From positions 1-32,292 of the forward strand of contig JAHFUQ010000033.1 in NCBI GenBank assembly GCA_023265045.1: a DNA stretch of 32,292 nt. The letters are read 5' to 3'. Positions 19,370 through 22,926 of this stretch are shown here, piece after piece; the stretch's first letter is position 1, and every line of letters starts with the position of its first letter. Position numbers and translations under genes: made by a program. The notes under the pieces are model-generated. The model was not told the DNA's origin and made no database searches. It worked only from the letters and a program-made list of their open reading frames with translations. The stretch is from Acidimicrobiia bacterium. GTDB taxonomy: Bacteria; Actinomycetota; Acidimicrobiia; Acidimicrobiales; AC-14.

Positions 19370-20893
19370 CTAGGCGGGGGTCGGGGTCGTCAGGCAGCCG
19401 GCTTCGCGGCCGAGGTAGCGGAGGCCCTCGCGGTCGGGGGGGCGGTACTCGGCGGGGCGGGAGGTCTGGTCGGCCGTCTCGGGGTACATGATCGCCCCCT
19501 TGTCCCGGGTGTGGCCCAGGCCCATCACATGGGCCAGCTCGTGGAGGATGACTCGGCCCCACTGGACGGCGTCGTGGCCGATGGCGCCGACGCCGGAGCC
19601 GATGGTCGGCCCGAAGCCGGGCTGCACCTTGGCCCGGGTGTCGCTGTTGGTGATGGCGTCGATGTTCAGGCTGAGCTGGCCGGAGACGAGCACGTCGCCC
19701 ACTCGCGAGCCGATGCCCCGCCCCACCGCCTGGATGGCGGGGTCGCTGCCTTGGTTCCCGAACGAGATCCAGCTCACCAGGATCGGCGCCCACCGCGGGC
19801 CGTAGCGGTCGGGGAGGAACTGGCTGCGGCCGCGCACCCGTTCGTCGGTCGTGCCGTCGTCGATGAAGGTGATGCCCGTGGCCTCGCTCAGCATCCTGAA
19901 GGCGGTGCGTACGTCCTCGGGGCCGCCTGGTGGCGCCTGCGCCACGTTCTGCACGTAATGGAGCGGCTCGCAGGGGTTGAACCGCACGGGCGAGCACCCG
20001 TCGCTCTTGGTGAACAGGAACGAGTACGAGTTGGGCAGCTTGGGGATGTCCTCGGGACGCTGGCCGCTGACGTAGGTGTCCTCGTGCCCCTTGGACGGGC
20101 AGGCGTTGAGAGGGCCGGCGTCGGCGGCCGTGGTCGCCGTGGCCGCCGAGGACGAGCTTGACTTGGACGAGCCGCCCGCGAACACGGTGACCGCCAGGAT
20201 CAGGCCGAGCACGGCCACGCCCGCCACCACTCCGGACGTCACGAGCTTCTTGGCCGCCACCGCGACCTGCTGGCGGTAGCGCCCGCCGACGTCGATGGCC
20301 TCGCCCACGGCCGGCGTCGCCAGGATCTTGAACGGCGTCTCGCGCTCGTCTCCGGTGAACAACTTCCGGAGCGGGGCCACGTCGACCGTCACCGCCGCCG
20401 GGCGGTCGGTTCCCACCGTCACGGTCGGGGGATCGATGCGGACGTCCACGCCGTCGGCCCCGGTTGCGGTCAAGGCAACCTCGACGGGTGCGTTGCCCCG
20501 GTTGGCCAGCGAGACCTTGTACTGCACGGGTCCCTTGTCGCTCGCCTCGGACGGGTCGAGCGAGATCGACAACGAGCTGAACGGCTGGACGTCGATCACG
20601 CCGCTTGCGGCCGGCCCGTCCTGGCCGTCGACCCGCACCTCGAACGCCAGCGGGCCGGCCGCGGGCGTGCTGGTGCGCGGCACCCGAAATCCGACGCGTG
20701 CCGCGGCTTCGGCGCCCGGCTCGACCGTCAACGTGTCGGGGACGATGTAGGAGAACGGCCGCCCCGGCCCCGCCACCTGCAGCCGGACCGTCGCCGCTGC
20801 GTCGCCGACGTTGCGCACCGTGACGTCGGTCGCGACCGTGCCGCCCGGCTCGATCCCGAGGGCGCCCACACCCAGCGATACGGTCACCGCCAT
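19370..20893 (-). CDS. Membrane-anchored matrixin-like metalloprotease with N-terminal beta-sandwich repeats
   Basis: The protein is 507 aa starting at ATG 20893. Residues 1-~200 look like two immunoglobulin-like domains of the COG1470/NEW3 kind (patterns VRNVGDAAATVRLQV and LANRGNAPVEVALTATG). A single hydrophobic helix spans about 218-241, preceded by Arg/Lys (RYRQQVAVAAKK) and followed by a Ser/Ala/Thr-rich linker. Residues ~265-507 hold a zinc protease domain with HELAHVMGLGH (451-461) and a downstream methionine turn (IMYP, 468-471), the metzincin pattern of matrixins. There is no signal peptide. By the positive-inside rule, the beta-sandwich part lies in the cytosol and the protease outside. 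Substrate unknown. Confidence 0.8.
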   Translation of the reverse strand: MAVTVSLGVGALGIEPGGTVATDVTVRNVGDAAATVRLQVAGPGRPFSYIVPDTLTVEPGAEAAARVGFRVPRTSTPAAGPLAFEVRVDGQDGPAASGVIDVQPFSSLSISLDPSEASDKGPVQYKVSLANRGNAPVEVALTATGADGVDVRIDPPTVTVGTDRPAAVTVDVAPLRKLFTGDERETPFKILATPAVGEAIDVGGRYRQQVAVAAKKLVTSGVVAGVAVLGLILAVTVFAGGSSKSSSSSAATATTAADAGPLNACPSKGHEDTYVSGQRPEDIPKLPNSYSFLFTKSDGCSPVRFNPCEPLHYVQNVAQAPPGGPEDVRTAFRMLSEATGITFIDDGTTDERVRGRSQFLPDRYGPRWAPILVSWISFGNQGSDPAIQAVGRGIGSRVGDVLVSGQLSLNIDAITNSDTRAKVQPGFGPTIGSGVGAIGHDAVQWGRVILHELAHVMGLGHTRDKGAIMYPETADQTSRPAEYRPPDREGLRYLGREAGCLTTPTPA

Positions 20894-22029: not shown

Positions 22030-22926
22030 GTGCTGATCCTCGGGATCGAGACCGCCACGCAACAGGTCGGGTGCGCCATCGGCGGCTACGAAGGGGTGCG
22101 GGCCACGTTCCATGCGGCCCGGAGGCGCCGCCACGTCGAGACGCTGGCGCCGGCCATCGACTTCGTCTGCCAGCAGGCCGACGTGCCCCTGAGCGAGCTG
22201 GGCGCGGTCGCGGTGGACGTGGGGCCGGGCCTGTTCAGCGGCCTGCGGGTGGGCGTGACGACGGCCAAGACGCTGGCCCAGGCCCTGCGCCTGCCTGTCA
22301 TCGGCGTGTCGAGCCTGGACCTGCTGGCCTTTCCTGTCCGCCACAGCAACCGGCTGATCGTGCCCGTGATCGACGCCCGCCGGGGCGAGCTGTACTACGG
22401 CTTCTACCGCCAGGTCCCGGGGGGCGTGCAGTGCCTGTCCGGGTACCAGGTGGGCAAGCCCGGCGAGCTGGTGTCGGAGCTGCTGGCCCGGGGCGAGGAC
22501 GTCCTCATGGTCGGCGACGGCGTCGTCCGCTACGCCGACGAGCTCAGCGGGGTCGTGCGCTGCGAGCTGGCCGGGTCGCCGCACCTCTACCCGTCGGCCT
22601 CGGCGCTCGTCGCCCTTGCCCACCCCCGGGCGGTGCGCGAGGACTTCGTCTCGCCGTCCGAACTGGAGCCGATGTACCTGCGCAAGACCGACGCCGAGAT
22701 CAACTGGGAGGTGAGCGCGGGGTGGGGGCGGGCGCCGAAGCCGCATCCCAATCCCGGCGTCGACGACGACATCGGCGGCCCGGACGGCCGCGACGACCTG
22801 GGCGGCCCGGACGGCCGCGACGACACCGGCGGCCCGGACGGCCGCGACGACACCGGCGGCCCGGACGGCCGCGACGACACCGGCGGCCCGGACGGCCGCG
22901 GCGAGGCCGGGCGTCAGGCCAGCTGA
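22030..22926 (+). CDS. tsaB: t6A complex protein TsaB with repeat-encoded acidic tail
   Basis: TsaB is a partner and dimerisation subunit of TsaD with an ASKHA fold. The protein is 298 aa, against a usual ~210-240. The core has LILGIETATQQVGCAIGG at the N-terminus, VDVGPGLFSGLRVGVTTAK (62-80) and ends near ELEPMYLRKTDAEINWE (211-227). Residues ~230-298 are extra. They contain five copies of a 9-residue unit with core GGPDGRDD, encoded by a 27-bp tandem repeat. GTG 22030 is one base after tsaE. The stop overlaps the rimI ATG. Confidence 0.93.
   Translation: MLILGIETATQQVGCAIGGYEGVRATFHAARRRRHVETLAPAIDFVCQQADVPLSELGAVAVDVGPGLFSGLRVGVTTAKTLAQALRLPVIGVSSLDLLAFPVRHSNRLIVPVIDARRGELYYGFYRQVPGGVQCLSGYQVGKPGELVSELLARGEDVLMVGDGVVRYADELSGVVRCELAGSPHLYPSASALVALAHPRAVREDFVSPSELEPMYLRKTDAEINWEVSAGWGRAPKPHPNPGVDDDIGGPDGRDDLGGPDGRDDTGGPDGRDDTGGPDGRDDTGGPDGRGEAGRQAS
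22771..22905 (+). repeat. 27-bp tandem repeat inside tsaB, five copies
   Basis: The unit (NNN then GGCGGCCCGGACGGCCGCGA plus CGAC-type ending) repeats five times, the fifth diverged at its end (GGCGAG). The unit is in frame, so copy-number change alters only the length of the TsaB tail by 9 residues per copy. Units 3 and 4 are identical; unit 2 differs in its first codon (CTG for ACC). Confidence 0.92.

What the first reader, a model, noticed from the sequence alone, without database searches (positions are those of the whole stretch)
19370..20893. Metzincin protease predicted to be tethered with cytosolic beta-sandwich domains
The HELAHVMGLGH domain follows a single membrane helix whose N-side is positively charged, and there is no signal peptide. 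Thus ~215 residues of Ig-like domains would sit inside and the protease outside. Such a layout could sense an internal state and control an external protease. The gene sits between alr and the uracil-DNA glycosylase, near cell-wall precursor genes.
Basis: partly seen in the sequence, partly recalled or inferred. Interest (0 to 1): 0.55.

Follow-up and report, generated by a model that had tools for sequence, protein, structure and literature searches.

The report
Surface protease with injection-system effector tail
An actinobacterium carries a collagenase-like protease, probably displayed on the outside of the cell, whose inner part is related to the front part of proteins linked to phage-tail-like injection machines, although most bacteria with this combination do not have such a machine.

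Summary
Window 19370-20893 (-) encodes 507 residues: two beta-sandwich domains from residue 1 without signal peptide, one membrane helix (about 217-238) and an MMP-like metzincin domain (HELAHVMGLGH plus Met-turn). Homologues support the topology: the catalytic domain also occurs as lipoproteins and signal-anchored proteins, has conserved cysteines and keeps its zinc motif (39 of 40 complete); three relatives carry the N-terminal module alone, soluble, without signal peptide.

Among 297 genomes of the order, other carriers of the module usually have a CIS sheath (32 of 38, against 8 of 250 without module). The metzincin fusion is uncoupled: 2 of 9 genomes have a sheath, and none of 11 fusion genes is on a sheath contig. 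The module tree places the 11 fusion modules plus 3 soluble ones on one side of a branch (98/99), which fits one origin; the protease has changed anchor repeatedly.

The inside-out sensor idea is untested; no neighbour is shared beyond close relatives. Best reading: a type II ecto-metzincin with a borrowed CIS-effector-type cytosolic handle, now CIS-independent.

The parts
19370..20893 (-). whole gene, 507 aa, three-part metzincin
   Evidence: 11 full-length relatives aligned (this one included)
20582..20893 (-). first PapD/ASH-like beta-sandwich, residues about 1-104
   Evidence: AlphaFold2 strands, pLDDT mostly 80-90; Pfam HYDIN-type Ig (PF22544) 2.8e-6 over the cut-off; alignment A1
20270..20581 (-). 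second PapD/ASH-like beta-sandwich, residues about 105-208
   Evidence: AlphaFold2; Pfam FixG_C 3.6e-7 over the cut-off; FimC-like Z 10.1, rmsd 2.4, 96 aligned
20180..20245 (-). single membrane helix, residues about 217-238, basic on its N side
   Evidence: helix 217-236; hydrophobicity and K/R counts
20102..20179 (-). Ser/Ala/Thr-rich linker, residues about 239-264
   Evidence: low pLDDT; poorly conserved in length and sequence
19373..20101 (-). MMP-like (M10) metzincin domain, residues 265-507, four cysteines (265, 300, 308, 500)
   Evidence: Pfam, model and fold match, cysteine columns
19511..19543 (-). zinc-binding motif HELAHVMGLGH, residues 451-461
   Evidence: E, second His, Gly and third His kept in 40 of 40, first His in 39 of 40
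19481..19492 (-). Met-turn IMYP, M469
   Evidence: Met in 39 of 40 homologues

Best explanation
The gene encodes a type II (N-in, C-out) membrane protein. Shown by homology and prediction: a twin PapD/ASH-like module in the cytosol, one membrane helix, and an MMP-like zinc protease domain of the kind that relatives export. Shown: the module is homologous to the N-terminal module of proteins encoded in CIS gene clusters, and the metzincin version is largely uncoupled from CIS genes. Inferred: the protease and the module were joined once in this bacterial order, the helix became an ordinary signal anchor, and the protein now works as a tethered ecto-protease that trims surface proteins near the membrane. 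Inferred and least certain: the cytosolic module is a docking handle that binds a protein partner inside the cell and so places or holds the protease, rather than a small-molecule sensor.
For: Profile of the 11 fusion modules alone finds all 35 other modules tested, including the CIS-cluster hydrolase of Streptomyces clavuligerus at 9.5e-41, and none of 5000 shuffled decoys at E<=10; that hydrolase lies among sheath, gp25, VgrG and DUF4255 genes. CIS link of the module and uncoupling of the fusion: 32 of 38, 8 of 250 and 2 of 9 genomes with sheath, second marker PF14065 in 0 of 7 sheath-less fusion genomes and 11 of 11 sheath-positive ones. Protease outside: six lipoprotein relatives and several signal-anchored ones; cysteines. 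Module inside: three soluble stand-alone modules. K/R before the helix exceed those after in 11 of 11 fusion proteins, 7 of 30 others. The 14 fusion and soluble modules lie on one side of a branch at 98/99. dN/dS of the module 0.19-0.67, so it is kept by selection, though more loosely than the protease (0.14-0.42).
Against: All topology evidence is indirect. The AU test neither rejects nor shows a clade of the 11 fusion modules by themselves (p 0.204), because the soluble ones lie among them. Close relatives of the protease have no module (lipoproteins; L028 with most of the module deleted), so the module is not needed for export or folding of the protease. The docking role has no direct evidence. 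The module evolves faster than the protease. The window's own genome does have a CIS cluster, so a CIS link there is not excluded.
Confidence: 0.55

Rival explanations
1. It is a working CIS effector: the module loads the protein into or onto the injection particle, and the protease is delivered on firing.
For: Module homology to CIS-cluster proteins; published Sco4256-4258 are needed for filled CIS tubes and cell death (PMC10066040, passages read); the window's genome has a CIS cluster with eCIS_core, tube, sheath and AAA genes next to another module protein (L034).
Against: 7 of 9 fusion genomes lack both the sheath and PF14065; none of the 11 fusion genes lies on a contig with a sheath hit; the G006 sheath is of a two-sheath kind without the module nearby; the fusion modules branch apart from all 32 others.
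Confidence: 0.12
2. Inside-out sensor: the cytosolic sandwiches sense an internal state and switch the outer protease across the membrane.
For: Topology is compatible; the module is under purifying selection.
Against: No ligand-binding feature, no conserved partner gene; a single helix and a flexible low-confidence linker make conformational coupling to the protease unlikely; relatives work without the module.
Confidence: 0.13
3. Relic: the module is a leftover of the fusion and only serves as a folded cap in front of a signal anchor; it has no function of its own.
For: Repeated loss or exchange of the module among closely related proteases (starred branches force at least 4 label changes); L028 keeps only a remnant; module identity falls faster than protease identity.
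Against: dN/dS below 1 in all six pairs (0.19-0.67); two intact sandwich folds; soluble stand-alone copies kept in three genomes.
Confidence: 0.15
4. The whole protein including the module is exported by an unrecognised route.
For: The closest folds of the module include periplasmic chaperones and surface proteins.
Against: No signal peptide in any family member read; soluble modules with 3-5 cysteines; module proteins sit with cytosolic CIS genes. A fold match says nothing about location.
Confidence: 0.05

Closest known systems
Sco4256/Sco4257/Sco4258 CIS-associated effectors of Streptomyces coelicolor (PMC10066040, PMC10020575; passages read)
   Same: Conserved N-terminal domain likened to pilus chaperones, single membrane helix, exchangeable C-terminal domain; sequence homology shown here through the S. 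clavuligerus CIS-cluster hydrolase, not against Sco4256 itself
   Different: C-terminal metzincin; gene away from CIS genes; mostly in genomes without CIS; basic side of the helix is the N side in all 11 fusions
M10 matrixins (matrilysin, karilysin; bacterial matrixin family metalloproteases)
   Same: Zinc motif, Met-turn and fold
   Different: Cytosolic twin sandwich plus signal anchor instead of signal peptide; two conserved cysteine pairs in the close subfamily
CisA (SCO4242), CIS membrane adaptor (PMC12237407; abstract and passages read)
   Same: Single-pass, N-in and C-out
   Different: Its N-terminus is reported as largely unstructured; no sequence relation was found or tested here

Membership tests
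Metzincin / Peptidase_M10 | HEXXHXXGXXH zinc motif | tested here: met
   residues 451-461; complete in 39 of 40 homologues
Metzincin / Peptidase_M10 | Met-turn after the zinc motif | tested here: met
   M469; 39 of 40
Metzincin / Peptidase_M10 | Pfam score over the curated cut-off and matching fold | tested here: met
   33.7 bits against 24; matrilysin Z 14.6, rmsd 2.7, 152 aligned
Metzincin / Peptidase_M10 | proteolytic activity | not testable with these tools
   needs a bench assay
Sco4256-type CIS effector | homologous N-terminal module | tested here: met
   fusion-module profile finds the S. clavuligerus CIS-cluster protein at 9.5e-41
Sco4256-type CIS effector | single membrane helix directly after the module and a variable C-terminal domain | tested here: met
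Sco4256-type CIS effector | encoded in or next to a CIS cluster | tested here: not met
   0 of 11 fusion genes on a contig with a sheath hit; no CIS gene among the window genes scanned with Pfam
Sco4256-type CIS effector | genome has a CIS | tested here: inconclusive
   own genome yes, but 7 of 9 fusion genomes no
Sco4256-type CIS effector | carried in the CIS tube and toxic on delivery | not testable with these tools
   needs experiments

The most novel reading that the evidence does not exclude
The twin-sandwich module is a general cytosolic dock for CIS particles on type II membrane proteins whose outer domains act on or bind the envelope (peptidoglycan-binding and ChW domains, beta-propellers, long beta-repeat stalks, and here a protease). 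On this reading Sco4256-type proteins are not only injected toxins but also membrane landing pads, and the metzincin branch, where the outside position of the C-terminal domain is clear, reveals the orientation of the whole family.
Probability: 0.15. Interest if true: 0.8.

Novelty: new variant of a known kind. Interest (0 to 1): 0.5.

Why it matters
The N-terminal domain of the Streptomyces CIS effectors has no assigned job in the papers read here. A branch in which the same module is joined to a protease that must work outside, in genomes without any CIS, gives a way to ask what the module does on its own and how these proteins sit in the membrane. It also shows a CIS-type module moving into ordinary surface biology.

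Tried and rejected
CisA (SCO4242) as the relative: rejected because its N-terminus is reported as unstructured. Neighbour-based function: all-against-all comparison of the 7 kb on either side of the 11 fusion loci gives shared neighbours only within close relatives (window-G003; G018-G071; G004-G006-G008; G072-G213); the one other pair is a 25% identical match. No sigma-70-type promoter or terminator pattern around the gene, uninformative. First genome-contig scan with the single protein found nothing; the second, with A3, gave six named loci in Acidimicrobiia and Actinomycetota MAGs. Full-length model gave a poor protease part, so the protease was modelled alone. Literature: searches for metzincin with contractile injection, Acidimicrobiia with contractile injection and hydrolytic protein with contractile injection found no paper in the held library; the wider effector and metalloprotease search listed none on this fusion by title and abstract. 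Paywalled papers and preprints were not searched.

Limits of the counts: genomes are drafts, many of them MAGs; the window's genome is 85% complete and 5.9% contaminated. The sheath test treats genomes as independent, which they are not. The 100-bit cut for other modules was chosen after seeing the hits; with 140 bits the figures are 19 of 24 and 21 of 264. Into I entered by hand the stronger module hits and left out weaker further hits of the same genomes; every genome with a hit was entered. Module hits under the cut count as without module. Anchor labels in the tree were assigned by eye. The proteins' start sites in scripts were the start codon nearest to the aligned position 1. A4 lacks one fusion protease (L004), so that tree has 10 of the 11. 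The identity of the contigs of G004, G006 and G213 with named MAG contigs rests on equal contig length only.

Full report
What is there. The gene at 19370-20893 on the minus strand encodes 507 residues. Residues 1-208 form two beta-sandwich domains, 217-238 a membrane helix, 239-264 a loose linker and 265-507 a metzincin. The protease modelled alone has mean pLDDT 89.5 and matches matrilysin and karilysin. The N-terminal part matches PapD-like pilus chaperones and the HYDIN/CEP192 (ASH) domains, in line with the published HHpred result for Sco4256 (PMC10020575, passages read).

Topology. No signal peptide precedes the module, and in relatives the start codon lies at or within a few residues of the same first strand. 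Among 41 module proteins with a helix, the 11 metzincin fusions all have more K/R before the helix than after it; of the 30 others 7 have more, 6 equal and 17 fewer (Fisher p 1e-5, with related sequences counted as independent). The protease is found in relatives as six lipoproteins (L013, L014, L015, L022, L023, L024, lipobox read by eye), behind signal-peptide-like N-termini and behind short charged N-terminal tails with one helix. Cysteines 308 and 500 are kept in 40 of 40 homologues, and 265 and 300 in 19 and 20 of 40, as expected for disulfides outside the cell. Three relatives (G004, G006, G008) have the module alone, with neither signal peptide nor helix. Together this supports module inside, protease outside, but no direct test exists.

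Relation to contractile injection systems. A profile made only from the 11 fusion modules finds all 35 other modules tested, and no decoy of 5000. One of them, WP_003963535.1 on a Streptomyces clavuligerus plasmid, lies between sheath, tube, baseplate, VgrG-like and DUF4255 genes. In a sample of 297 genomes of the order the sheath family occurs in 42; in 32 of 38 genomes that have other module proteins (100 bits or more), in 2 of 9 with the metzincin fusion and in 8 of the remaining 250. Several other modules lie within 30 kb of the sheath; no fusion gene is on a sheath contig. A second CIS family, PF14065, is absent from all 7 sheath-less fusion genomes and present in all 11 sheath-positive genomes that were searched. 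The window's own genome has a CIS cluster on another contig, with a module joined to a PD40 beta-propeller. Published work shows that deletion of sco4256-4258 leaves CIS tubes mostly empty and abolishes stress-induced death (PMC10066040, passages read).

History. In the module tree the 11 fusion modules and the 3 soluble ones lie on one side of a branch at 98/99 support, against 32 others. In the protease tree the 10 fusion proteases included fall with six lipoproteins and three signal-anchored forms in one group at 97/99, and starred branches force at least four changes between fusion and other anchors. L028 keeps about the first 40 residues of the module and then runs into the helix. In a sample of 396 genomes of the phylum, the only full-length matches are in G000 and G018, both of this order, while module-only and protease-only matches are widespread. 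The simplest account, inferred, is one fusion in this order followed by several losses.

Mechanism. The protease most likely cleaves surface proteins close to the membrane. The module is kept by selection (dN/dS 0.19-0.67 in six pairs) but more loosely than the protease. Since the module in other proteins goes with a large cytosolic particle, and ASH/PapD-like domains usually bind proteins (recalled, not tested), I take it as a protein-docking handle. That step is inference.

Verdict. I score it 0.5: unexpected for a specialist and testable, but the role of the module is unknown.

Noticed in passing
L034 (G000:C186:1-13354): CIS cluster in the window's own genome: LuxR-type regulator, Pvc16_N, AAA ATPase, module joined to a PD40 beta-propeller, eCIS_core protein, sheath and tube.
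   Followed up: partly
L130 (G051), L131 (G131), L132 (G068): Neighbouring genes with a weaker form of the same module and a helix near residue 220 followed by long beta-repeat regions, within about 25 kb of the CIS sheath.
   Followed up: partly
L008, L010, L019, L026, L047, L058, L063-L066 after the helix: Many CIS-linked module proteins have a basic stretch resembling KPxVxxTA right after the helix; the metzincin fusions do not (read by eye).
   Followed up: no
L029/L041, L049, L050 (G008, G006, G004): Soluble stand-alone modules of 215-221 residues; in G006 and G004 the gene upstream looks like an Rrf2-type regulator by eye.
   Followed up: partly
L028 (G004:C53): Protease with most of the module deleted, only a remnant left before the helix.
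   Followed up: partly
window 22650-22920: The TsaB-like protein ends in tandem repeats of GGPDGRDD.
   Followed up: no
L017, L094, L095, L104, L107, L108: Protease relatives that follow repeats like GYWLVASDGGIFSFGDA, apparently exported.
   Followed up: no
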